Positions 1 through 50,568 of a stretch of 64,000 nucleotides of DNA are shown one piece after another. A program made the translations under genes and the position numbers. The stretch spans positions 1,674,001-1,738,000 of the forward strand of contig NZ_CP011144.1 of the NCBI RefSeq assembly GCF_000972865.1, in the 5' to 3' direction. This DNA is from Pseudoxanthomonas suwonensis (lineage in GTDB: Bacteria > Pseudomonadota > Gammaproteobacteria > Xanthomonadales > Xanthomonadaceae). Under the pieces are notes generated by a model. That model did not search any database, was not told where the DNA came from, and saw only the letters and a list, made by a program, of their open reading frames with translations. Numbering within the stretch: position 1 is the stretch's first letter; each line of letters starts with the position of its first letter.

Positions 1-1715
1 TACAGCATCAGCAGCCGGTCGGGGAAGATGATCTGGCCTTCCTTCGTGACCACGCCCAGGCGGTCGCCGTCGCCGTCGAAGGCCAGGCCCAGGTCGGCGT
101 CGAAGCGCTTGACCGTGGCGATCAGGTCCTCGAGGTTGTGCGGATCGCTGGGGTCTGGATGGTGGTTGGGGAAGCTGCCGTCGACGTCGCAATACAGCGG
201 GATCACCTCGGCGCCGATCGCCTCCAGCAGGCGCGGGGCGATGTCCCCGGCAACCCCATTCCCGGCGTCGGCCACCACCTTCAGCGGCCGCTCCAGCTGC
301 ACGTCGTCGGCGATGCGGCGGATGTAGTCCTCGTCCACCGCCTGCTGCTGCAGTGAGCCGACGCTGTCGGCCTGGAGCAGGCGACCGTCGCGGATGCGCG
401 CGTACAGGTCGTGGATGGCGGTGCCGGACAGGGTCTCGCCGCCGACCACGACCTTGAAGCCGTTGTAGTCGGGCGGGTTGTGGCTGCCGGTCACCGCCAC
501 GCCGCTGCCGGCGCGCAGGTGGTAGGCGGCGAAGTACACCACCGGGGTCGGGACCATGCCCACGTCGATCACGTTGCGGCCGGCCTTACGCAGGCCCTCG
601 ATCAGGCCGCCGGCCAGCTCCGGGCCGGACAGGCGGCCGTCGCGGCCGACCACGATCTCGGTCAGGCCCTGCTCGGCCATCACGCTGCCGATGGCCTGGC
701 CGATCCAGGCGGCGACCTGCGGGGTCAGTTCGCGCCCGACCACGCCGCGGATGTCGTAGGCGCGGAAGATCCCCGGCGTCAGCTGGACCTCGGCCACCAC
801 CGGCGCGGCGCGCGCCGGGGCGGCCGGCGCCGTTTCCTGGTCGCGCCGGATGGTCTGGCCCAGGGTCGGCGTTTCCTCCTCGACCACCACCGCCTTGCGG
901 CGCACCTGCGGCAGCTTGCCGTAGGCAAGCAGCATCGCCAGCACCGCCAGCAGCGCGAGCACCACGGCGGCGACCAGGCACGGGATGGCGCCCAGCCCGA
1001 ACGGGCCGCGGGCCACGTCCGGCACCGCGGCGGCGGCGCGCAGGCCGGTCTTGCCGACCTCGCGCGAGAGCACGTCGGCGCTGCCGGCCAGCGCGGCGTC
1101 GCCGCGCTCGGCCACGTTGTAGCCGCCCTGGCGCAGCGCCAGGTAGGCGCCGCCGGGTACGGCGGCCTGTTCCAGGCCCGCGGTCAGCGACGCCAGCGGC
1201 AGGCGCACGTAGGCCACCGCGGGGACGCCGGCCAGCGCCGCCGGCGCGGCCAGACCCAGGCGCGGCGCGCCTTCGTCGCGGACCACCGCAGCCACCGCGG
1301 CGCCGTCGCTCATCGCCTTCTCGAGCAGGCCGAGCCGGGCGTAGCCGAAGCCGGCCGCATCGGCGTAAGCGCCGACCAGATCGGCGCGCAGGAACTGCGC
1401 ATGCTCCACGCCGTTCCAGCCGGCGGTCAGCGCGGCGGCGGCGGCGGCCGGATCGGCGGCGGCCAGCGCGGCCTGCACGTCCTCGCGCGCGAGCCGCTCG
1501 TCCAGGGCGCGGGTCTGCGCCGCCACCGCGGCGGCGGCGGCGGCCACCATGCCGTCACGGGCCGCGACCAGCTGCTGCTCGCGCGCGTCGGCGCGCCACT
1601 GCGCCACGCCGCTCCAGGCGAACCAGGCGGCCAGCAACGCCAGCAGCAACGCCAGCAGCGGCGCGCTCCTCCTGACCTGCCCGGCCGACAGCGGACCTGC
1701 TTGCATCTGCACCAT
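1..1715 (-). CDS. algC: Phosphomannomutase/phosphoglucomutase with N-terminal membrane extension (3' part off the window)
   Basis: Interconverts hexose 6-phosphate and hexose 1-phosphate for sugar-nucleotide and polysaccharide synthesis. The gene runs off the left edge, so about 571 residues are visible. The mutase domain starts near residue 311 (FRAYDIRG). It carries the phosphoserine loop GSHNPP with Ser at 411 and the metal loop DGDGDR near 541-546. The first 300 residues are an Ala-rich extension with membrane segments near 22-38 and 238-262, so the enzyme is probably membrane-anchored. Long N-terminal extensions are, as I recall, also annotated for some Pseudomonas AlgC entries; the family core alone is about 450 residues. 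It follows dut by 17 bp, and the order coaBC-dut-algC matches Pseudomonas. The start ATG at 1715 has GGGGAAAGGAACGC upstream. Confidence 0.88.
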   Translation of the reverse strand, partial: MVQMQAGPLSAGQVRRSAPLLALLLALLAAWFAWSGVAQWRADAREQQLVAARDGMVAAAAAAVAAQTRALDERLAREDVQAALAAADPAAAAAALTAGWNGVEHAQFLRADLVGAYADAAGFGYARLGLLEKAMSDGAAVAAVVRDEGAPRLGLAAPAALAGVPAVAYVRLPLASLTAGLEQAAVPGGAYLALRQGGYNVAERGDAALAGSADVLSREVGKTGLRAAAAVPDVARGPFGLGAIPCLVAAVVLALLAVLAMLLAYGKLPQVRRKAVVVEEETPTLGQTIRRDQETAPAAPARAAPVVAEVQLTPGIFRAYDIRGVVGRELTPQVAAWIGQAIGSVMAEQGLTEIVVGRDGRLSGPELAGGLIEGLRKAGRNVIDVGMVPTPVVYFAAYHLRAGSGVAVTGSHNPPDYNGFKVVVGGETLSGTAIHDLYARIRDGRLLQADSVGSLQQQAVDEDYIRRIADDVQLERPLKVVADAGNGVAGDIAPRLLEAIGAEVIPLYCDVDGSFPNHHPDPSDPHNLEDLIATVKRFDADLGLAFDGDGDRLGVVTKEGQIIFPDRLLML

Positions 1716-8360: not shown

Positions 8361-8458
8361 TGTAGGAGCCGGGTTCAGCCGGCGACACGGGCGTCGGGGT
8401 CATGAGGGCGTCGCCTGTGCCGGCGGCGTCGGGTCGCCGGATGAATCCGGCTCCTACA
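8361..8458. repeat. REP palindrome A1
   Basis: A full unit of the window's REP family, bounded by TGTAGGAGC and GCTCCTACA. The left arm continues CGGGTTCAGCCGGCGACACGG and the right arm GTCGCCGGATGAATCCG, so the unit can fold into a long imperfect hairpin. Its interior has the family signature CGTCGCCTGTGCCGG. Confidence 0.9.
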
Positions 8459-15287: not shown

Positions 15288-15419
15288 CCGCTGCCGGCGC
15301 CACCCGCCTCCCCCATCGGTCATGCCCCCGGTTTAACGCGTCTGCAACGAACGCCGCCGCCGTTCCGCGTTAGCTTGGCCGTTCCGATGCCATCCCGGCG
15401 TCCCCGGAGCCACCCATCC

Positions 15420-17498
15420 ATGCACCGCATGCATCGCACGACCCTGCTCGTCTCCAGCCTCGCCCTGGCCCTGGCCGCCTGCACCGGCAAACAAGGCGAC
15501 ACCGCGCAGGCGCCGGCCGCCCCCAAGGAAGTGGAACTGATCCCGCGCGACGCGCTGTTCGGCAATCCCGAGCGCGCGGTGGTGCAGATCAGCCCCGACG
15601 GCAAGTACCTGAGCTGGATCGCGCCGGTCGAGGGCGTGATGAACGTCTGGGTCGCGCCCGCCGACGACCCGTCCGCCGCACGCGCGGTCACCGACGACAA
15701 GGCCCGCGGCATCCGCAGCTACTTCTGGTCCTACCGTCCCGACACCCTGCTGTACCTGCGCGACACCGGCGGCGACGAGGACTTCCACCTGTACTCGGTG
15801 GACCTGGCCGGCAACCAGACCCGCGACCTCACCCCGTTCCCGAAGACCACCGCGCAGGTGGTCGGGGTCAGTCCGAACCAGCCCGACAGCATCCTGGTCG
15901 GCATGAACGACCGCGACACCAGGTGGCACGACCTGTACCGCGTCGACCTGGCCAGCGGCCAGCGCACCCTGGTCGAGAAGAACACCCAGGAGATCGCCGG
16001 CTACCTCGCCGACGGCGACCATGCGCTTCGCTTCGCCTTCCGCTCGCGGCCCGACGGCGGCATGGACGTGCTCAAGCGCGCCGGCAACAGCTGGGAGAAG
16101 TCCGACGACATCCCGTTCGAGGACGTGCTCACCACCAATACCGTGGGCCTGACCCAGGACGGCAGCACCCTGTACCTGTCCGACTCGCGCAACCGCAACA
16201 CCGCCGCGATCTACGCGATCGACACCGCCAGCGGCCAGCGCACCCTGCTGGCCGAGGATGCCCGCGCCGACATCGGCGGCGGCCTGGCCGACCCGCGCAC
16301 CGGCGAACTGCAGGCGGTGTCGGTGGACTACCTGCGCAACGAATGGAAGCCGGTGGGCGACGCGCTGACCGCCGACCTGAAGACGCTGGAGGCCATCGGC
16401 CCCGGCGAGGTCGGGGTCAACGCGCGCACCCTCGACGACCGCACCTGGATCGTCACCTACTCGGCGGCCGAGTCACCGGTGGTCTACTACCGCTACGACC
16501 GCACGCCCGGTGCCGAGGGCCAGCTGACCCGGCTGTTCTCCGCGCGCCCGGCGCTGGACGGCAAGCCGCTGGTGCCGATGTGGCCGCAGGAGCTGAAGTC
16601 GCGCGACGGCCTGACCCTGCCCAGCTACCTCACCCTGCCCGCGCACGCCGACCCGGACGGCGACGGCAAGCCCAACGAGCCGGTGCCGATGGTGCTGCTT
16701 GTCCACGGCGGCCCGTGGGCGCGCGACGGCTACGGCTACAGCGGCTGGAACCAGTGGCTGGCCAACCGCGGCTACGCGGTGCTGTCGGTCAACTACCGCG
16801 GCTCCACCGGCTTCGGCAAGGATTTCACCAACGCCGGCGACGGCGAGTGGGCCGGCAAGATGCATGACGACCTGGTCGACGCGGTCGACTGGGCGGTCGG
16901 CGAGGGCATCACCACCGCCGACAAGGTCGCGATCATGGGCGGCAGCTACGGCGGTTACGCCACGCTCGTCGGCTTGACCTTCACCCCGGAGACCTTCGCC
17001 TGCGGCGTGGACATCGTCGGCCCGTCCAACCTCAACACCCTGCTGGCCACGGTGCCGCCGTACTGGGCCAGCTTCTACGAGCAGCTGGCGCGGCGCATGG
17101 GCGACCCGCGCACCGAGGAGGGCAAGGCCTGGCTGACCGAGCGCTCGCCACTAACCCGCGCCGACCAGATCACCAAGCCGCTGCTGATCGGCCAGGGCGC
17201 CAACGACCCGCGGGTGAAGCAGGCCGAGAGCGACCAGATCGTCGAGGCGATGCAGGCCAAGGGCATCCCGGTGACCTACGTGCTGTTCCCCGACGAGGGC
17301 CACGGCTTCGCGCGGCCGGAGAACAGCAAAGCCTTCAACGCCGTCGCCGAGAACTTCCTGGCCAACTGCCTGGGCGGCCGTGCCCAGCCGATCGGCGAGG
17401 ACCTGACCGGCTCGAGCGTCACCGTGCCCGCCGGCGCCGATGGCGTGGCCGGGTTGGCCGAGGCGCTGCAGGCCCATACGCAGGACGTGCGGAAGTAG
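15420..17498 (+). CDS. S9 family (prolyl oligopeptidase-type) lipoprotein peptidase
   Basis: A 692-residue exported serine peptidase of the dipeptidyl/acylaminoacyl peptidase group (S9). A lipoprotein signal peptide ends with lipobox LAAC (Cys21), so the enzyme is probably anchored to a membrane facing the periplasm. Residues about 45-420 form the beta-propeller that restricts substrate size. The alpha/beta hydrolase domain follows with nucleophile Ser509 in GGSYGG, Asp596 in GANDPRV and His628 in EGHGF. The ATG at 15420 gives a short basic n-region; the ATG three codons later is equally possible. Exported S9 peptidases are numerous in Lysobacter and Xanthomonas. Confidence 0.9.
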   Translation: MHRMHRTTLLVSSLALALAACTGKQGDTAQAPAAPKEVELIPRDALFGNPERAVVQISPDGKYLSWIAPVEGVMNVWVAPADDPSAARAVTDDKARGIRSYFWSYRPDTLLYLRDTGGDEDFHLYSVDLAGNQTRDLTPFPKTTAQVVGVSPNQPDSILVGMNDRDTRWHDLYRVDLASGQRTLVEKNTQEIAGYLADGDHALRFAFRSRPDGGMDVLKRAGNSWEKSDDIPFEDVLTTNTVGLTQDGSTLYLSDSRNRNTAAIYAIDTASGQRTLLAEDARADIGGGLADPRTGELQAVSVDYLRNEWKPVGDALTADLKTLEAIGPGEVGVNARTLDDRTWIVTYSAAESPVVYYRYDRTPGAEGQLTRLFSARPALDGKPLVPMWPQELKSRDGLTLPSYLTLPAHADPDGDGKPNEPVPMVLLVHGGPWARDGYGYSGWNQWLANRGYAVLSVNYRGSTGFGKDFTNAGDGEWAGKMHDDLVDAVDWAVGEGITTADKVAIMGGSYGGYATLVGLTFTPETFACGVDIVGPSNLNTLLATVPPYWASFYEQLARRMGDPRTEEGKAWLTERSPLTRADQITKPLLIGQGANDPRVKQAESDQIVEAMQAKGIPVTYVLFPDEGHGFARPENSKAFNAVAENFLANCLGGRAQPIGEDLTGSSVTVPAGADGVAGLAEALQAHTQDVRK

Positions 17499-17550
17499 GC
17501 TTGGCCGCGGGGCACCGTGCATTCGGTGCCCCGCGCTGTTCCCGCTGATC

Positions 17551-17623
17551 CCCCGTCGCCCATGGCGCAGGCGCCACCTTCGTGGTTCCGACGCCCGTGT
17601 CGCCAGCAAGCTGGGCTCCTACA
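17551..17623. repeat. Partial REP unit B
   Basis: The right half of the REP family: GTTCCGACGCCCGTGTCGCC followed by AGCAAGCTGGGCTCCTACA. The left end lacks a recognisable TGTAGGAGC. A degenerate GCAGGAGCCGGGC follows at about 17642. Confidence 0.7.
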
Positions 17624-17666
17624 AAAAAGCGGCCGAGGCTTGCAGGAGCCGGGCTGGCCGCCGCGC

Positions 17667-18833
17667 TCAGGCCGACGGCACTGGCCACACCCGGCCCGCG
17701 GGATCGAACTCGGCGTTGCGCATGGTGTCGCCACGCCAGCCGAAGCCGCATACCGCCACCACTCCTTCTTCCAGCGCGTCGAGCCCCAACGCCTGCTCGA
17801 TATTGACCTCGTTGACCGCGCAGGTGACGAACGCCCCCAGGCCCAGGTCGGTCGCACCCAGGTACAGCGTCTGCGATAGGTGCCCGGCGTCCATGATCAC
17901 CGCGCGGTAGGCCTTGGGATGGCGGCGGTACTTCCAGAAGCAGCGGCCGAAGCGCGCCGCCATCACCACCAGCACCGGTGCGTCGGCGAACCAGTGCTGG
18001 CCGGCGACCGCGTTCATCGCCAGGTCGCGCATCGGCACGTCCGGCGCTGGCAGCGGCTCGAGCGCATGCGCGAGCGGGTGGTAGTGGTACAGGCCGGGCG
18101 CGAGGCCCTCGACCCGCTGCACGATCAGGTAGGCCTCGGTCGGATGCAGGCTGCCGCCGGACGGGCTGCCCTTCTTGAGGAACACGGTATCGTCGTCCAT
18201 CCGCCACTGCCCCTGGGCGGCGAACACGCGCTCCAGCATCCGCGCCAGCAACGGCTGCGGCAACGCACGCTCGAGGTCGAAGTTGCGGCACGTGGTCCGG
18301 CGCCTCAGCAATTCGTCGAAGTCGGTGGCCTCGCCACGCGGCAGCGCGAGCCTGTGCGCCGGATCGCAGCGCTCCACCACCGCCGCCGGCGGCACGCCGA
18401 GATGGGTGCTCAGGCCGACGGCGGTGGACAGACCTGCCGCCTCTGTCGCTGCCGCCGCGTCCTCACCGGCCCAGCGCCCGGCGCGATGGAACATCGCTGC
18501 CGGCCCCCACCAGTGGCTGTCGCGGAGGCTCGCATCGGCCACCGCCTGGTCGCCATCCTCGGCGATCGCCAGCCCCAGTGCCAGCAACCGGTCCAGCGCA
18601 CCTTCGGGCCACGCGGCCAGCGCTTCGTCCACTGTCCATTCTTCAGCCGACAGGCGTCCCAGGCACTCACGCGCGGCCTCGTCGATGGTGACCGGCGCCG
18701 CCAGATGTGGCGCATGCGCGATCCATTCCTGCCACCGGGACGCGCCACTGCCGCCGGCCAGGAGACCAGCCAGGTCGAACTCCACCTGCTCGCGCGGCTC
18801 CAGGTACACGATCGCGCAACGTCTGACCCGCAT
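17667..18833 (-). CDS. SagB-related FMN nitroreductase, putative peptide-maturation dehydrogenase
   Basis: A 388-residue protein with an N-terminal domain (about 1-170) and a C-terminal SagB/ThcOx-type nitroreductase domain. Visible FMN-binding features are RRRTTCRNF (177-185), SPSGGSLHPTEAYLIV (223-238) and SQTLYLGATDLGLGAF. SagB enzymes oxidise azolines to azoles in ribosomal peptides. I recall a Xanthomonadales-specific subfamily (TIGR04511, putative peptide maturation dehydrogenase) that pairs with the peptide gene next door, and this protein fits it. The N-terminal VTIDEAARECLGRL ... LLALGLA stretch resembles a winged-helix peptide-binding fold. The start MRVRRCAIVYLEPRE at 18833 was chosen on protein pattern and a GGGGAGGCGGA just upstream. 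It diverges from the precursor gene across 86 bp. Confidence 0.8.
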   Translation of the reverse strand: MRVRRCAIVYLEPREQVEFDLAGLLAGGSGASRWQEWIAHAPHLAAPVTIDEAARECLGRLSAEEWTVDEALAAWPEGALDRLLALGLAIAEDGDQAVADASLRDSHWWGPAAMFHRAGRWAGEDAAAATEAAGLSTAVGLSTHLGVPPAAVVERCDPAHRLALPRGEATDFDELLRRRTTCRNFDLERALPQPLLARMLERVFAAQGQWRMDDDTVFLKKGSPSGGSLHPTEAYLIVQRVEGLAPGLYHYHPLAHALEPLPAPDVPMRDLAMNAVAGQHWFADAPVLVVMAARFGRCFWKYRRHPKAYRAVIMDAGHLSQTLYLGATDLGLGAFVTCAVNEVNIEQALGLDALEEGVVAVCGFGWRGDTMRNAEFDPAGRVWPVPSA

Positions 18834-18879
18834 TCCGCCTCCCCTTGAAAGCCCGGCACCACAGTATGACCATGCATCA

Positions 18880-18897
18880 CCGCACAATTTCGTGCGG
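18880..18897. promoter_or_regulatory. Inverted repeat in the divergent peptide-system promoter
   Basis: CCGCAC (18880-18885) and GTGCGG (18892-18897) enclose AATTTC. The repeat lies 22 bases before the precursor-peptide start codon and 46 bases before the dehydrogenase start on the other strand. It could be an operator shared by both genes. No convincing -35/-10 pair was found. Confidence 0.4.
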
Positions 18898-18919
18898 GGA
18901 ACCACCCTAGGGGAAAACG

Positions 18920-19234
18920 ATGATCAGCGACTCCAAGAGCCAGCCCATGGATCCGGCCGTGGTCGACAAGCTTCTCGACGGCCTGTCCAACGATGATGAC
19001 TTCCGTGCGCTGTTCACCAAGGATCCGCGTGCCGCGCTCGAGAAGGTAGGCCACAAGGTCGGCAGCACCGACCAGCTGCTTTGCGCCCAGGTCACGACGT
19101 TGGCGCCGAAGGAGGAAATCGCGGAAGCGCGGAAGGCGCTCCACGCCTACTTGACCGATCGTAATGCGGCCGCGATGACGATCATCTTCAATTTCGAAGC
19201 CGGAAAAGTTGAATCGTCGCTACCAAAGGCCTAG
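18920..19234 (+). CDS. Putative modified peptide precursor with NHLP-like leader
   Basis: A 104-residue probable RiPP precursor. Residues about 11-50 (VVDKLLDGLSNDDDFRALF, then KDPRAALEKVG) follow the pattern of nitrile-hydratase-like leader peptides: a short helix, an FRxxL-like segment and DPRAAL. TLAPKEEIAEARKAL comes next, and a short hydrophobic then polar tail (83-104, with MTIIFNFEAG) that would be the core. There is one Cys, at 55, and no Gly-Gly leader site. I recall TIGR04509 (putative modified peptide) as the matching Xanthomonadales family. The ATG at 18920 has AGGGG six bases upstream. The last 60 bases are visibly poorer in G+C than neighbouring genes. A precursor role is inferred from leader pattern and neighbours. 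Confidence 0.75.
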   Translation: MISDSKSQPMDPAVVDKLLDGLSNDDDFRALFTKDPRAALEKVGHKVGSTDQLLCAQVTTLAPKEEIAEARKALHAYLTDRNAAAMTIIFNFEAGKVESSLPKA

Positions 19235-19268
19235 TTGCCGCCGACACGTGTCGCAGCAACGCGACTTG

Positions 19269-21776
19269 CTAGTGCGATTTGGTGGCAGCGGCCGATTCAC
19301 CGGCCGCTGCCACGTCCGCCACATTTAGTGGTTGCATCAGCTGAGTGATTGCCACTTCAGCCAGCGCTTGACCACGATGCGCCCGGAGCCAATCTTCCTG
19401 CTCCAAGACGTCCCTTGAACTGCCGGAAGCTCGCTTGAGTTCGCGCATTACCACGCGCGCCTGGACGAATTCCGAGCCGTCGAGTTGTGGACGCAACAGG
19501 TTCGCACCGTCATTGCTCCGGCCTTCCAGCCGCATTTGATTCGCACGCACCACTGTCAGTAGCTTATCGACCAGCCGATTACGCAGCTTCGTCGACTCGG
19601 GTTCCAACCAACGAAGATTCCGTGCTGCAAATTCCGTGCGGCCGTCGCGCTGTGCAAGATAGATGAGCATCGAGAAGCGGAACATCTCTTCGTGTCGCGC
19701 AACCATATTCTCGTCCGCCAGCACAGCACGGAACTCGCGCGCCAACTTCTCGAGCTCCTCTGGGTCAGCCGGCTTACCTGCGGCCGAAAGGATCACGAGG
19801 CTCACCAGGCGGAAGTGTCGATGAAACCGATCGGGCATTAGTGATGAACGGTCACGGATCTGTTCGGCTATTCTGATCGCCCGCTCTGGATTTCCCTCTT
19901 CAAGCGCCAGGGAAGCAAGGCCCTGCTGAGCGAACATCCACAAGAAGGCGCTATCCTCGGGCTTCACTTCTCCGAGCAAACGCACGGCCTCTTCGCGCCG
20001 GCCCAGCAGTGCCAGTGCTTCGGCCCGCGCACTTCTGGCGGGCGCCCCTCCCGCCATGCTTGCTTGATCAAGAATTTCCAGGGCGTCGTTCGGCCGCCCT
20101 TGTGCCGTGTAGATTCGAGCCACATGAACCAATGAATAGGCACGCCGAGGGGCTTGCGTGACCGATGCTGCCAGCGCATGGGGCAAGGCCTCTGAGAAGC
20201 GATTTTCCACCATCAAGTGCCACGATGCGTTCGACTGCGCACCGAAATGATCGGGATACAACTTGGCCAAGGTAAGCCACTGGGCAAGGGATCCACCGGC
20301 TGGAGATGTCTCGACCTGCCACGCATCCACCTGCAGACGATCTCTCGGCGGAAGCGTGTCGCGCACGCGAGCGGCATCCATGACATGCCGGCGTGCCGCA
20401 TCGAAATCGTCAAGCGCCCAGGCCAACATCGCCAACCCAAGATGCGCCCGGGCGAACGACGGGTCGATCTGCAAGGCGCTCACGTACAAGCCCTTCGCCT
20501 CGTCAAACCGCCCCTGGATGATCGAAGTCTCGGCCAATGCGTAGGCCCGCAATGCATCCAGTTCCGAAGTCGTCGCCTGAGGCAGTGGCGCCGCCTGCTG
20601 CTCGATGGATGCTATAGCCTCGCCAAGCTTTCCGCGAAGGTTGCCAGCCACTTGGTCGATGGAGTCGAGGAGGGAGTCGATTCCTTTCCCGCTCGCCTTC
20701 TCTGAGTAGATCGTCGCTTGCGTCTTCGGGTCGATGATCTCAACCGAGAACTGAAGATTGTTGTTTACTTCGGCAACGCTTGGAAGAATTACCGCCCGCG
20801 CCCCATCTCGCAAGGCCACCTGCGAGGCCAGGTTGCGATCCAGGTTGCTGCCGTCGGGATCCAGGCGCATCTGCGCAAGCGTCTGCCGCACTTTCAGGTC
20901 GCTGAGCACGTTGACGTACCGCGACTGCTCCAGACTGATCCGGAACGCCTGCTCCAGCGAGTCGTCGAGCACGGTCTGGCCGGTGAGGTTGCGCAGGTCG
21001 CCCACCACCACCCAGTCGCGTTCGGAGAAGGCGATGGCCGGCTCGGGCCGGGTGATGAACCAGCCACCCACCACCAGCCCGGCGACGAGCACCACTTCGG
21101 CCACCAGCGCGGCGGGCCGGCGCCACAACGGCATCTCGCGCCGCGCCTTGGCGTCGCCGCGCGGCATGCGCAGCGGGGCGAAGCCGGGCTCGCCGACCTC
21201 GTGCACTTCCTGCACTTCCGGTACGCCCTTGAAGTGCCAGCGCCCGTGCGTGCGCCACTGCAGCGCCTCGCCGCGCTCGCCCAGCTCGCGCGCCGAGCGG
21301 CGCACCAGCGGCTCGGCCACCGACGACAGCAGGATCTGGCCGGGCCGGGCCAGCTGCATCAGCCGCGCGGCGAACGGCTTGGCCAGGCCTTCGACCTCCA
21401 CCGGCTTGGCGCCGGCGCTCACCGCTTCCTCGCTGTTGCGCCAGATCAGCACCTCGCCCACGTGCAGGCCGGCGCGCGCCAGCAGCGGGCCGATGCGGTG
21501 CGCCTGGCCGAGCGCGTCCAGGCCGCGGCGGTAGTCCAGGGCGAAGCCGAGCCCGTCCAGCGGGCGCTCGAACAGCAGCAGCAGGCCGTCGGAGCGATCG
21601 ATCAGGCGGCCGCGCCAGCGCTGCTGCAGTTCCAGCACCAGGCGGTCGTGGTCGCGGAACACGACCGCGGCCCGGCTGTCGCCCAGCGACTCCACCAGGT
21701 TCGTCGAGTCGCACAGGTCGGTCAGCAGCAGGGTCCGCAGCTGCGGGGCGTTGGCGTCGTGCGGCATGCCATCCAT
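19269..21776 (-). CDS. Membrane class III nucleotide cyclase-TPR protein, putative peptide-modification-system cyclase
   Basis: An 835-residue protein. Residues 12-200 are a class III adenylyl/guanylyl cyclase-like domain with metal Asp20 in LLLTDLCDST, Asp63 in DRSDGLLLLF and AGLHVGEV. The usual N-x-A-A-R helix reads KPFAARL, so the conserved Asn is absent and activity is uncertain. A membrane segment spans about 222-242. The exported part has a TolB/FlgO-like segment (about 253-390) and TPR-like repeats (about 405-800). I recall TIGR04510 (putative peptide modification system cyclase) for such proteins beside TIGR04509 peptides; here cyclase would mean nucleotide cyclase. The 3' two-thirds has about 58% G+C, against about 70-83% in the 5' third. 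MDGMPHD (21776) was chosen; MPHD at 21767 is possible. Confidence 0.78.
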   Translation of the reverse strand: MDGMPHDANAPQLRTLLLTDLCDSTNLVESLGDSRAAVVFRDHDRLVLELQQRWRGRLIDRSDGLLLLFERPLDGLGFALDYRRGLDALGQAHRIGPLLARAGLHVGEVLIWRNSEEAVSAGAKPVEVEGLAKPFAARLMQLARPGQILLSSVAEPLVRRSARELGERGEALQWRTHGRWHFKGVPEVQEVHEVGEPGFAPLRMPRGDAKARREMPLWRRPAALVAEVVLVAGLVVGGWFITRPEPAIAFSERDWVVVGDLRNLTGQTVLDDSLEQAFRISLEQSRYVNVLSDLKVRQTLAQMRLDPDGSNLDRNLASQVALRDGARAVILPSVAEVNNNLQFSVEIIDPKTQATIYSEKASGKGIDSLLDSIDQVAGNLRGKLGEAIASIEQQAAPLPQATTSELDALRAYALAETSIIQGRFDEAKGLYVSALQIDPSFARAHLGLAMLAWALDDFDAARRHVMDAARVRDTLPPRDRLQVDAWQVETSPAGGSLAQWLTLAKLYPDHFGAQSNASWHLMVENRFSEALPHALAASVTQAPRRAYSLVHVARIYTAQGRPNDALEILDQASMAGGAPARSARAEALALLGRREEAVRLLGEVKPEDSAFLWMFAQQGLASLALEEGNPERAIRIAEQIRDRSSLMPDRFHRHFRLVSLVILSAAGKPADPEELEKLAREFRAVLADENMVARHEEMFRFSMLIYLAQRDGRTEFAARNLRWLEPESTKLRNRLVDKLLTVVRANQMRLEGRSNDGANLLRPQLDGSEFVQARVVMRELKRASGSSRDVLEQEDWLRAHRGQALAEVAITQLMQPLNVADVAAAGESAAATKSH

Positions 21777-21786
21777 CGTCGCCGTC

Positions 21787-22824
21787 TCAGGTACCCAGCG
21801 ATTCGGCGCCGTCGATCCAGAAGGCCCGGTTGCCGCCCAGGCGCTTGGCTTCGTACAGGGCCGAGTCGGCGCGGGCGTACCAGTCATTCCAGTCCTGCTC
21901 GGGCTCCACCAGGCAGGCGCCGACGCTGACCGGGCAGATGGTCGGCACCGCCTGCTGCAGCAGCAGCAGGCTGCGGGTGGTGGTGACCACGAAATCGGCG
22001 TAGCGCATCACGTCCTCGCGCCGGTGCGCCGACACCAGCAGGCAGAATTCGTCGCCGCCCAGGCGGCAAGGCACGTCGTCGGCGCCGGCCACCGAGCGCA
22101 GGATGCCGGCGATGTTCTGCAGCACGCGGTCGCCGATCAGGTGGCCGTGGTCGTCGTTGACCTGCTTGAAGCGGTCGCAGTCCACCAGCACCAGGCCCAT
22201 CGCGTTCTTCATGCCCAGCCGGCGGCACTCCTGCAGGTGCAGGGTCAGGCCGCGGCGGTTGTACAGGCCGGTGAGCTCGTCGGTGCGGATCAGCTCCTCG
22301 GTCTGGTTGAGCTGGTGGGTGGTGGCGTAGAGGTTGTCCAGCGCCGTTTCCAAGTCCTGGTTGCGGCGGCGCAGCTGGCGGATCAGGCTCTGCTCGTTGA
22401 GCACCACGCGGGTGATGGAGCGGCGCAGGAACTGCGCCACCAGCCCCGGGTTGCGCTCGACCAGCTGCTGGAACTCCTCCTGGCCCAGTTCCACCAGGCG
22501 GCCGTCGGTGGCGGCCACCGCGTCGGCGCTGCGGGTGTGCTCGCCGATCAGCAGGCCCAGTTCGCCGAAGAACTCCTGCGGCCCCAGCTGCTTGGTGGCC
22601 AGGTCGTTGCCGAAGTCCAGCTCGATCCGGCCGTGGCCGATGACGTACATGAGGTCGCCGGTGTCGCCGCGGCGGAACACGCGCTCGCCGGCGCGCACGA
22701 CCCGCTCGCGGCCGACGGCGGCGAACAAATCGAACTCGCACGCCGCCAGGGCGGCGTTTCCGCCACCGCTGCCATCCTGGTCCATCCTGTCTCGGACGTT
22801 GCGTGCCACGCCGTCGCTCGACAT
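21787..22824 (-). CDS. Diguanylate cyclase with N-terminal cyclic-nucleotide-binding domain
   Basis: A 345-residue cytosolic signalling protein. Residues about 30-140 form a cNMP-binding domain with phosphate-cassette pattern FGELGLL (86-92) and RSA (98-100), compatible with cAMP or cGMP binding. A coiled linker leads to a GGDEF domain (about 182-340) with intact GGDEF at 256-260 and metal Asp in LVDCDRFK. The allosteric RxxD I-site is absent. It therefore looks like an active c-di-GMP synthase gated by another cyclic nucleotide. Only 10 bp separate it from the class III cyclase gene downstream, so the two are probably one operon. The start MSSDGVARN has a GTGGG just upstream. Confidence 0.87.
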   Translation of the reverse strand: MSSDGVARNVRDRMDQDGSGGGNAALAACEFDLFAAVGRERVVRAGERVFRRGDTGDLMYVIGHGRIELDFGNDLATKQLGPQEFFGELGLLIGEHTRSADAVAATDGRLVELGQEEFQQLVERNPGLVAQFLRRSITRVVLNEQSLIRQLRRRNQDLETALDNLYATTHQLNQTEELIRTDELTGLYNRRGLTLHLQECRRLGMKNAMGLVLVDCDRFKQVNDDHGHLIGDRVLQNIAGILRSVAGADDVPCRLGGDEFCLLVSAHRREDVMRYADFVVTTTRSLLLLQQAVPTICPVSVGACLVEPEQDWNDWYARADSALYEAKRLGGNRAFWIDGAESLGT

Positions 22825-23277
22825 CCCACGGCTCCCGTACCCGGCCCCCCCCGGGTGAACGGGGAGCATACCATCGGGTCGCGTATGCCACGGGACCCAA
22901 ATGGGAGGTCGGCCACCGGCCGTCGGCCCGGGGCGACCGCTGGGCATCCGGGGAATGGACCGGTGGGGGCGTGGGCCGGGGCGGGTGGCCTTGCGGGCGG
23001 CGCGACGGGCCGGGACCGGCGGCCGGCCCGGCCGAGGCCCGGTGGCGGCGCCTGGCGCATGCGCAAGCGCGCTCCCCGATTCCGGCAGGCCATATCGCAG
23101 CATGGCGTGACTCCGATACCCGTGTCGCATGTGTCCTGTAGGAGCCGGGTTCAGCCGGCGACACGGGCGTCGGGACCACGAGGGCGTCGCCTGTGCCGGC
23201 GTCGTCGCGTCGCCGGCCAAACCCGGCTCCTACACAGGGGTAACGTCGGAACGGGGGGCGCAGCGGCCGGGTCCGGG
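22825..23277. other. Noncoding interval between the GGDEF gene and aceA
   Basis: About 450 bases without a supportable gene. The left part must contain the promoter of the GGDEF-cyclase operon, but no clear -35/-10 is seen in this very G+C-rich stretch. Open frames here lack family motifs and ribosome-binding sites. The right part holds a REP unit (23137-23234). Confidence 0.6.
23137..23234. repeat. REP palindrome C
   Basis: A full unit from TGTAGGAGC to GCTCCTACA with arm CGGGTTCAGCCGGCGACACGG on the left and GTCGCCGGCCAAACCCGG on the right, and interior CGTCGCCTGTGCCGG. It is near-identical to unit A1 in its left half. Confidence 0.9.
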
Positions 23278-23315
23278 AAAAAAAAGCGGGTGCGCCCTCT
23301 CCCAGGCGCACCCGC
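23278..23315 (-). terminator. Strong intrinsic terminator of aceA
   Basis: Read on the minus strand, GCGGGTGCGCC and GGCGCACCCGC form a perfect 11-bp stem with an 8-base loop, followed by eight consecutive T. It lies 45 bp after the aceA stop and ends the glyoxylate transcript. Confidence 0.93.
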
Positions 23316-23359
23316 AAGACCGGCCTGCCTCCGGCGCTGCCGGTCCGGCCGTCCTGGCC

Positions 23360-24652
<1,293 letters not shown>

Positions 24653-50102: not shown

Positions 50103-50200
50103 TGTAGGAGCCGGGTTCAGCCGGCGACGCGACGCCGTCGGCCCAGGCGACGCCCTCGTGATTCCGACGCCCGTGTCGCCGACTGAAGTCAGCTCCTACA
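50103..50200. repeat. REP palindrome K1 (first of the tandem array)
   Basis: A full unit: TGTAGGAGCCGGGTTCAGCC at the left, CGACTGAAGTCAGCTCCTACA-type at the right. It is followed by a spacer GGAGCCGGGCTTGCCGGCGA with CGGCCACGCAGGCACAGCAA that recurs after K2. Confidence 0.9.
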
Positions 50201-50291
50201 GAAGAACGGCGGCACTGCAGCTGTTACGGGGAGCCGGGCTTGCCGGCGATCGGCCACGCAGGCACAGCAAGAGCAGACGCGCCATTGCTGT

Positions 50292-50389
50292 TGTAGGAGC
50301 CGGGTTCAGCCGGCGACACGACGACGTCTGCACAGGCGACGCCCTCGTGATCCCGACGCCCGTGTCGCCGACTGAAGTCAGCTCCTACA
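50292..50389. repeat. REP palindrome K2 (second of the tandem array)
   Basis: Nearly identical to K1, 189 bp downstream. The spacer after it repeats the GATCGGCCACGCAGGCACAG segment. Confidence 0.9.
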
Positions 50390-50470
50390 GAAGAGCGGCG
50401 GCACGGCGGCGGTTGCGGGAGCCGGCGATCGGCCACGCAGGCACAGCAAGGGCAGCCGCGCCGCTACCGT

Positions 50471-50568
50471 TGTAGGAGCCGGGTTCAGCCGGCGACGCGA
50501 CGACGTCTGCACAGGCGACGCCCTCGTGATTCCGACGCCCGTATCGCCGACTGAAGTCAGCTCCTACA
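50471..50568. repeat. REP palindrome K3 (third of the tandem array)
   Basis: Nearly identical to K2, 179 bp downstream, with the same interior GACGTCTGCACAGGCGACGC. Confidence 0.9.

What the first reader, a model, noticed from the sequence alone, without database searches (positions are those of the whole stretch)
17667..22824. Compact RiPP-like locus combining a peptide precursor, a SagB-type oxidase and two second-messenger proteins
Seen: an NHLP-like 104-residue peptide gene diverges from a SagB-related flavin dehydrogenase. Directly behind the peptide is a membrane class III nucleotide cyclase-TPR protein cotranscribed with a cNMP-binding GGDEF protein. Known: SagB enzymes mature azole-containing peptides, and I recall three Xanthomonadales families (TIGR04509, TIGR04510, TIGR04511) for peptide, cyclase and dehydrogenase. 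Inferred: peptide maturation is tied to cAMP/cGMP and c-di-GMP signalling. No YcaO cyclodehydratase, protease or ABC exporter is present in the window, so the modification chemistry and product are unknown.
Basis: partly seen in the sequence, partly recalled or inferred. Interest (0 to 1): 0.85.

Follow-up and report, generated by a model that had tools for sequence, protein, structure and literature searches.

The report
Peptide cassette wired to guanylate cyclase
A small, probably enzyme-modified peptide is encoded beside a membrane enzyme that probably makes the messenger cyclic GMP, and the sensor half of that enzyme, the peptide's tail and the modifying enzyme vary together between related bacteria while the rest stays constant, as expected if the peptide is a signal read by the enzyme.

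Summary
The four genes exist as described, with one correction: the peptide gene converges on the cyclase gene and is not in its transcript. Peptide, oxidase and cyclase match TIGR04509, TIGR04511 and TIGR04510 far above cut-off. In 297 Xanthomonadaceae genomes all 185 with the peptide have an oxidase match and 184 a strong cyclase match. The cyclase/GGDEF pair fits XC_0250/XC_0249 of An et al. 2013, a demonstrated cGMP to c-di-GMP pathway; its text never mentions the peptide. YcaO is missing from this genome and from 168 of 185 peptide genomes, so azole chemistry is unlikely.

New: the TPR half of the cyclase (predicted periplasmic), the peptide core and the oxidase form a hypervariable cassette inside otherwise similar loci. 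Across 124 loci core similarity follows the TPR half (partial r 0.62), not the N half (-0.02). Within an allele all parts are under purifying selection.

Best reading: a polymorphic modified-peptide signal sensed by a receptor guanylate cyclase. Linkage is not excluded: core and TPR ends are neighbours, and distal peptides follow the oxidase instead. Export is unexplained.

The parts
17667..18833 (-). SagB-related flavin oxidase (TIGR04511); nitroreductase domain plus N-terminal part; Lys-Tyr pair K300-Y301 (numbering of the 387-residue translation without the start Met) invariant in 57 sequences
   Evidence: start codon read
18834..18919 (.). 86-base intergenic stretch between the divergent oxidase and peptide genes (presumed promoter region)
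   Evidence: the sigma-70-type consensus scan found nothing in 17400-23400
18920..19234 (+). RiPP-like precursor, 104 aa (TIGR04509)
18947..19159 (+). leader of the precursor (about residues 10-80), helical in the model (blocks of pLDDT 62-89)
19160..19231 (+). variable core of the precursor (residues 81-104), low-confidence tail in the model; class F (MTIIFNFEAGK type)
19269..20540 (-). hypervariable TPR half of the cyclase (about residue 450 to the end of the 872-aa ORF), predicted periplasmic; boundary median residue 453
20541..21053 (-). conserved stretch of the cyclase between membrane helix and TPR half
21054..21110 (-). single predicted membrane helix of the cyclase (residues 260-278)
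21111..21776 (-). class III nucleotide cyclase domain, predicted cytoplasmic; conserved
21787..22824 (-). cNMP-binding plus GGDEF protein, counterpart of XC_0249; all five tested cGMP-contact residues kept
17667..20540 (.). the hypervariable cassette: oxidase, peptide, TPR half of the cyclase; against locus L094 of the same genus, DNA aligns at 86% up to 17533 and at 87% from 20782, with one collinear 592-base piece at 67% between (plus a 61-base dispersed repeat that is not collinear)

Best explanation
The locus encodes a polymorphic peptide-signalling module. (1) The precursor has a conserved helical leader and a short allele-specific tail (seen in alignment and model). (2) The SagB-related oxidase recognises the leader and performs a flavin-dependent two-electron oxidation of the peptide without a cyclodehydratase (enzyme class and missing YcaO shown; recognition and chemistry inferred). 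(3) The matured peptide reaches the periplasm by an unknown route (inferred, weakest step). (4) There the core is recognised by the TPR half of a one-helix membrane protein (inferred from predicted topology and covariation). (5) Binding gates the cytoplasmic guanylate cyclase domain (inferred); cGMP binds the neighbouring cNMP-GGDEF protein and raises c-di-GMP (demonstrated by An et al. 2013 for the counterparts XC_0250 and XC_0249; inferred here from conserved residues). (6) TPR half, core and oxidase are exchanged as alleles on a constant output half, like the specificity cassettes of ComQXPA or agr (pattern shown; agr recalled).
For: Families far above cut-offs. Near-perfect co-occurrence in 297 genomes. 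cGMP site kept: F73, E90, H98 and E146 in 57 of 57, N145 in 49 of 57; GGDEF motif in 57 of 57. Six functionally tested cyclase positions found at the published spacing in 4 of the 6 sequences tried, and at residue 41 of the ORF in L050. One membrane helix in 118 of 124 (two in 4, none in 2), net charge +3.0 before and 0.0 after. Core class needs 4 changes on the tree of the cyclase C half, 6 on oxidase, 12 on the cyclase domain, 14 on GGDEF, 14 on gyrB, about 23 when shuffled (50 loci). Replicated without classes in 124 loci: partial r of core similarity given GGDEF 0.62 for the TPR half, 0.42 oxidase, -0.02 N half (residues 50-430). Given GGDEF and N half the TPR half reaches 0.64, highest of 199 permutations 0.07; with the oxidase controlled too, 0.52. 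Of 339 pairs with N halves at least 85% identical, 190 have TPR halves under 45%; change point median residue 453, quartiles 449 and 453. 56 TPR clusters against 1 cluster of the N half at 50% identity. L085/L191: oxidase 98%, N half 94%, GGDEF 95%, but TPR half 43% and core similarity 0.29. dN/dS within alleles 0.15 TPR half, 0.20 core, 0.16 oxidase, so not relaxed constraint.
Against: The core-coding end of the peptide gene is the physical neighbour of the TPR-coding end, so linkage alone predicts part of the covariation. In 14 loci with several precursors the distal peptides follow the oxidase (partial r 0.76) and not the TPR half once the oxidase is controlled (-0.02; 0.47 before). No exporter is known: C39 peptidase is found at 1e-10 in 203 of 297 genomes, and 11 of the 20 printed genomes without it carry the peptide, 7 of them at least 94% complete. 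L069 keeps oxidase and five near-identical precursors with a cyclase domain that has lost its motifs and no GGDEF neighbour. L087 keeps cyclase and GGDEF without peptide or oxidase. In An et al. the cyclase domain alone restored biofilm formation, so ligand gating is not required for that phenotype. The cyclase domain lacks some canonical residues, as those authors also state. The pair L085/L191 has its change point at residue 389, earlier than the median.
Confidence: 0.5

Rival explanations
1. Genetic linkage only. The 3' half of the cyclase, the peptide and the oxidase are contiguous and are replaced together by recombination whose end points fall in the conserved N half; the covariation of core and TPR half carries no information on binding.
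For: Contiguity; flanks of 82-92% identity on both sides of an unalignable block in L050/L051; distal peptides follow the oxidase, not the TPR half.
Against: Correlation does not fall off along 1.3 kb of the TPR half (partial r 0.44-0.56 in windows from residue 441 to 872) and stops at the domain border. Linkage does not explain why the block is so divergent while each allele is under purifying selection.
Confidence: 0.27
2. Autoregulated antimicrobial: the matured peptide is a secreted bacteriocin-like product; the cyclase senses it (own or foreign) to control production or tolerance, and diversity comes from competition.
For: Tandem precursors with different cores in L054, L085, L073, L191; in the nearest characterised relative, deletion of the precursor Os1348 or of the SagB-type Os1351 lowers antibiotic activity.
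Against: No transporter other than a sodium/proton exchanger (17 of 138 loci) was recognised among the representatives of recurring neighbour families that were scanned, 10 in all, 3 of them without a Pfam match; 14 of 124 loci have two or more precursors at E below 1e-6; the published phenotypes of the cyclase pair are biofilm and virulence.
Confidence: 0.17
3. Azole-forming (TOMM) peptide with a cyclodehydratase encoded elsewhere.
For: The oxidase model resembles ThcOx, McbC and BmdC, which oxidise azolines (substrate recalled).
Against: No YcaO in the own genome; 17 of 185 peptide genomes have one. The listed cores share no common place for Cys, Ser or Thr (read by eye).
Confidence: 0.03

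Closest known systems
XC_0250/XC_0249 cGMP to c-di-GMP pathway of Xanthomonas campestris (An et al. 2013, PMC3770947; parts 1-3 of 4 of the text read)
   Same: Adjacent cyclase-TPR and cNMP-GGDEF genes; cGMP-contact residues and tested cyclase positions conserved
   Different: The paper has no occurrence of peptide, SagB, operon or the next locus tags and calls the TPR part uncharacterised; the peptide, the oxidase and the hypervariable TPR half are outside that account
NCBIfam TIGR04509/TIGR04510/TIGR04511 (putative peptide modification system)
   Same: All three genes score far above the curated cut-offs
   Different: The model names cover the parts only, not the GGDEF partner, the cGMP link or the allele structure. 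A search for TIGR04509 in the paper library gave 0 papers
ComQXPA quorum sensing of Bacillus (PMC4008528, passages read) and agr (recalled)
   Same: Modifying enzyme, short signal and sensor are polymorphic (pherotypes) while the response regulator varies least; adjacent genes
   Different: Here the sensor is fused to a guanylate cyclase, not a histidine kinase; Gram-negative; NHLP-like leader and SagB-type oxidase; secretion and specificity untested
Os1348-Os1351 of Pseudomonas sp. Os17 (PMC7726476, passages read)
   Same: NHLP-clan precursor with a SagB-type dehydrogenase; the passage (cut off in the output) says of homologues of sagA, sagC and sagD in that genome that they 'were not'; best but weak structural match to the peptide model (E 0.85)
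   Different: Has acetyltransferase, peptidase and efflux genes; no cyclase among the named genes; antibiotic phenotype

Membership tests
TIGR04509 NHLP-related RiPP peptide | score above the curated cut-off of 34 bits | tested here: met
   93.1 bits
TIGR03793 NHLP leader family proper | score above the cut-off of 50.9 bits | tested here: not met
   16.4 bits; a relative, not a member
TIGR04511 SagB-related dehydrogenase | score above the cut-off of 240 bits | tested here: met
   549.7 bits
TIGR04510 cyclase | score above the cut-off of 400 bits | tested here: met
   1053.8 bits
azole-forming TOMM system | YcaO cyclodehydratase | tested here: not met
   none in the own genome; 20 of 297 genomes in all
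XC_0250/XC_0249 pathway | adjacent cyclase-TPR and cNMP-GGDEF genes | tested here: met
   window; GGDEF partner found on the fetched stretch in 132 of 138 loci
XC_0250/XC_0249 pathway | residues for cGMP binding and cyclase activity | tested here: met
   F73, E90, H98, N145 and E146 kept in the window protein; cyclase columns D41 in 60 of 61, D71 61, L73 46, A150 61, L157 51, A161 56 of 61; the exact spacing is not met in the window protein, which has one residue more
XC_0250/XC_0249 pathway | cGMP synthesis and cGMP-stimulated c-di-GMP synthesis | not testable with these tools
   needs purified protein
polymorphic peptide signalling (agr/ComQXPA kind) | sensor half, signal and modifying enzyme vary together on a constant output half | tested here: met
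   linkage not excluded
polymorphic peptide signalling (agr/ComQXPA kind) | signal is secreted and read specifically by its own sensor | not testable with these tools
   no dedicated exporter recognised; no binding data
polymorphic peptide signalling (agr/ComQXPA kind) | histidine-kinase receptor | tested here: not met
   the receptor candidate is a class III cyclase

The most novel reading that the evidence does not exclude
A bacterial receptor guanylate cyclase for ribosomal modified peptides: a SagB-type oxidase makes a strain-specific peptide pheromone that binds the periplasmic TPR half of a one-helix guanylate cyclase and sets cGMP and then c-di-GMP, with dozens of exchangeable specificity types in Xanthomonadaceae (56 TPR clusters in 124 loci). 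It would be a bacterial parallel to animal peptide-receptor guanylate cyclases.
Probability: 0.4. Interest if true: 0.92.

Novelty: new variant of a known kind. Interest (0 to 1): 0.8.

Why it matters
An et al. 2013 name no input signal for the cGMP to c-di-GMP pathway in the parts I read; this names a candidate input encoded next door and shows where the specificity may lie. It joins two bodies of annotation that no paper found here joins (searches; the library lacks most subscription journals), suggests a purpose for a SagB-type oxidase that works without YcaO, and makes receptor-ligand matching directly testable by exchanging TPR halves.

Tried and rejected
Azole chemistry by a YcaO in trans: rejected on distribution. 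C39 peptidase-transporter as the dedicated exporter: rejected as obligatory. A conserved exporter next to the module: none recognised. The first neighbour clustering (62 loci) merged several genes into two large groups; a stricter one (138 loci) gives isocitrate lyase in 121 and malate synthase in 114 loci on the GGDEF side, and on the oxidase side a Mg-chelatase-like gene in 61, a biotin carboxylase in 29, a Peptidase_S9 gene in 23 and a sodium/proton exchanger in 17 loci; of 10 representatives scanned, 3 had no Pfam match, and the other recurring groups were not annotated. Relaxed constraint as the cause of the variability: not supported. Distal precursors as an independent test of core-TPR matching: it failed, 14 loci. 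The first peptide profile was contaminated by antisense seeds; replaced. In the core-class count 11 labels were set by hand before any tree was seen: L038, L055, L062, L068, L080, L082 as N; L065, L070, L075 as P; L054, L088 as V. L069 was left out for its degenerate cyclase; L075 counts as P although its cyclase-adjacent peptide is of another class, and was left out; the class-free analysis keeps L075. A first count on 44 loci gave 2 changes on the whole cyclase, 5 on the oxidase and 15 on malate synthase; gyrB was used afterwards as the species control. The pair counts are not independent (few genera dominate). The fold match of the peptide is weak (all E above 0.8). Promoter and terminator scans found no promoter and no excess of terminators. 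A RiPP recognition element in the N-terminal part of the oxidase is only my reading of its secondary structure; no such chain is named in the printed structure matches, which does not exclude it.
Full report
WHAT IS THERE. From right to left on the minus strand it has a cNMP-GGDEF protein (21787-22824) and a cyclase-TPR protein (19269 to about 21776); on the plus strand a 104-residue peptide (18920-19234) that converges on the cyclase; and a SagB-related oxidase (17667-18833, minus) that diverges from the peptide. Peptide, oxidase and cyclase match TIGR04509, TIGR04511 and TIGR04510 with 93.1, 549.7 and 1053.8 bits against cut-offs of 34, 240 and 400. The peptide is a relative of the NHLP leader family but not a member of it (16.4 bits, cut-off 50.9). 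The own genome has one TIGR04509 match.

HOW CONSTANT THE ASSOCIATION IS. In the same 297 Xanthomonadaceae genomes, 185 have TIGR04509, 189 have TIGR04511 at E 1e-3 and 182 over the cut-off, and 184 have TIGR04510 over the cut-off. Comparing the printed tables: all 185 peptide genomes have an oxidase match; 184 have a cyclase match better than 1e-50, the exception being G175; of the 112 peptide-less genomes 4 have such a cyclase (G054, G126, G167, G290). Over the class, full-length TIGR04511 was over the cut-off in 5 of 369 genomes, four of this family and one of a second family of the same order. I fetched stretches around the locus; 140 were used, 138 of them with a cyclase over 300 bits. 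Of these 138, 136 have a peptide on the opposite strand within 1.5 kb of the cyclase 3' end, 128 an oxidase by my distance rule and 132 the GGDEF protein on the stretch. On the GGDEF side isocitrate lyase follows in 121 and malate synthase in 114 of 138 loci, so the module stays in place; the oxidase side is looser, its most frequent neighbour being a Mg-chelatase-like gene in 61 of 138.

THE SIGNALLING HALF IS KNOWN. An et al. 2013 (PMC3770947; parts 1, 2 and 3 of 4 read) showed that XC_0250, a class III cyclase with TPR repeats, makes cGMP and not cAMP, and that the linked XC_0249 binds cGMP and then makes more c-di-GMP. The chain 5h5o aligned fits the XC_0249 numbering with a constant offset of 22 for F73, E90, L91, H98, V142, N145 and E146 (identity of that chain with XC_0249 is my inference). 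The five residues tested by mutation are all present in the window protein; in 57 loci F73, E90, H98 and E146 are invariant and N145 is kept in 49. The cyclase positions D41, D71, L73, A150, L157, A161 named in the paper occur at exactly that spacing in four of six sequences tried (L042, L043, L050, L084) and at residue 41 of the ORF in L050; the window and L032 have one residue more between them. The paper has no occurrence of peptide, SagB, operon, XC_0251 or XC_0252.

THE NEW OBSERVATION. The parts do not vary evenly. On trees of 50 loci the core class changes 4 times on the C half of the cyclase, 6 on the oxidase, 12 on the cyclase domain, 14 on the GGDEF protein and 14 on gyrB; shuffled labels give about 23. 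In a class-free analysis of 49 loci with gyrB as control, partial correlations with core similarity are 0.56 (C half), 0.54 (oxidase), 0.13 (cyclase domain) and 0.20 (GGDEF). With 124 loci and GGDEF as control they are 0.62 (residues 445 to the end), 0.42 (oxidase) and -0.02 (residues 50-430); the TPR half keeps 0.52 after GGDEF, N half and oxidase are controlled, the oxidase 0.20 after GGDEF, N half and TPR half. Sliding windows put the switch at residues 400-480 of the 872-residue ORF: before it partial r is -0.06 to 0.05, in the window 401-460 it is 0.20, after it 0.44 to 0.56, and mean distance rises from 0.22-0.49 to 0.62-0.98. The best TPR match of Pfam starts at 457.

Close pairs show the cassette directly. 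L050 and L051 share 82-92% DNA identity on both sides of a 3.3-kb block without alignment, from within the cyclase to past the oxidase; the window and L094 share 84-92% on both sides of the same block. Of 339 pairs with at least 85% identity of residues 50-430, 190 have TPR halves below 45%; the change point is at residue 453 (quartiles 449 and 453, 5th percentile 388); these pairs are not independent and come mostly from a few genera. In L085/L191 the oxidase (98%), GGDEF (95%) and N half (94%) are nearly unchanged while TPR half (43%) and core (similarity 0.29) both differ. At 50% identity the 124 TPR halves form 56 clusters (32 of them single), the N halves one; 4 of 24 clusters with two or more members span genera. 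Within alleles all parts are under purifying selection: pooled dN/dS 0.09 (residues 50-430), 0.15 (TPR half), 0.16 (oxidase), 0.20 (leader), 0.20 (core) in 18 independent pairs. So the alleles are maintained and replaced, not decaying.

TOPOLOGY. 118 of 124 cyclases have one membrane-helix-like peak, 4 have two and 2 none; mean net charge is +3.0 in the 15 residues before and 0.0 in the 15 after. This predicts the cyclase domain inside and the TPR half in the periplasm.

READING. The pattern is that of a ligand, its modifying enzyme and its receptor half exchanged as one specificity unit on a fixed output. I commit to: oxidase-matured peptide, sensed by the TPR half, gating the guanylate cyclase, then c-di-GMP. 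Shown: families, association, residue conservation, cassette, purifying selection. Inferred: modification, export, binding, gating.

AGAINST IT. The core-coding end of the peptide gene is next to the TPR-coding end, so linkage predicts covariation. A test meant to separate the two, distal precursors in 14 multi-precursor loci, went against me: they follow the oxidase (partial r 0.76) and not the TPR half once the oxidase is controlled (-0.02; 0.47 before), while the proximal ones in the same loci follow the TPR half (0.88; oxidase 0.64). This fits linkage, or a role of only the proximal peptide as ligand. No exporter is known; 11 of the 20 printed genomes without a C39 match at 1e-10 carry the peptide. 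L069 has a degenerate cyclase and L087 has no peptide. Hence 0.5.

NOVELTY. The parts and the cGMP pathway are in print or in NCBIfam. That they belong together, and the hypervariable cassette, did not appear in the searches made (listings, and the papers named above); the library lacks most subscription journals. It works like polymorphic peptide signalling (for ComQXPA see PMC4008528, passages) but with a guanylate cyclase as the receptor.

Noticed in passing
window, 15 places, e.g. 8363-8456, 23139-23232, 50105-50493: A dispersed element around TAGGAGCCGGGTTCAGCCGGC, in several places as facing pairs: 15 matches with up to 3 mismatches against 0 expected; REP-like. One pair lies between the GGDEF and isocitrate lyase genes.
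   Followed up: partly
L069:7223-13634: Five near-identical precursors and an oxidase with a cyclase-like protein whose cyclase domain has lost its motifs and no GGDEF neighbour: the peptide arm seems to live on without cGMP output.
   Followed up: partly
L087:8566-12108: Cyclase and GGDEF genes without peptide and oxidase, a possible orphan receptor.
   Followed up: no
L054 and L088: Two genomes of one genus with many precursors ending mostly in VP-type tails and three or more oxidases in one stretch, no GGDEF neighbour.
   Followed up: no
L075:9506-12044: A second oxidase and a precursor of another core class next to the cyclase, beside an older-looking set next to the first oxidase.
   Followed up: partly
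window 15402-17495: Lipoprotein of the prolyl oligopeptidase family (Peptidase_S9, 149.6 bits) next to the oxidase gene; a Peptidase_S9 gene sits about 2.9 kb past the cyclase end in 23 of 138 loci of 6 genus codes. A processing role is conceivable but untested.
   Followed up: partly
L096:1357-3357: A C39-type peptidase beside a repeat-rich protein in the own genome, reminiscent of functional-amyloid operons (reading from memory).
   Followed up: no
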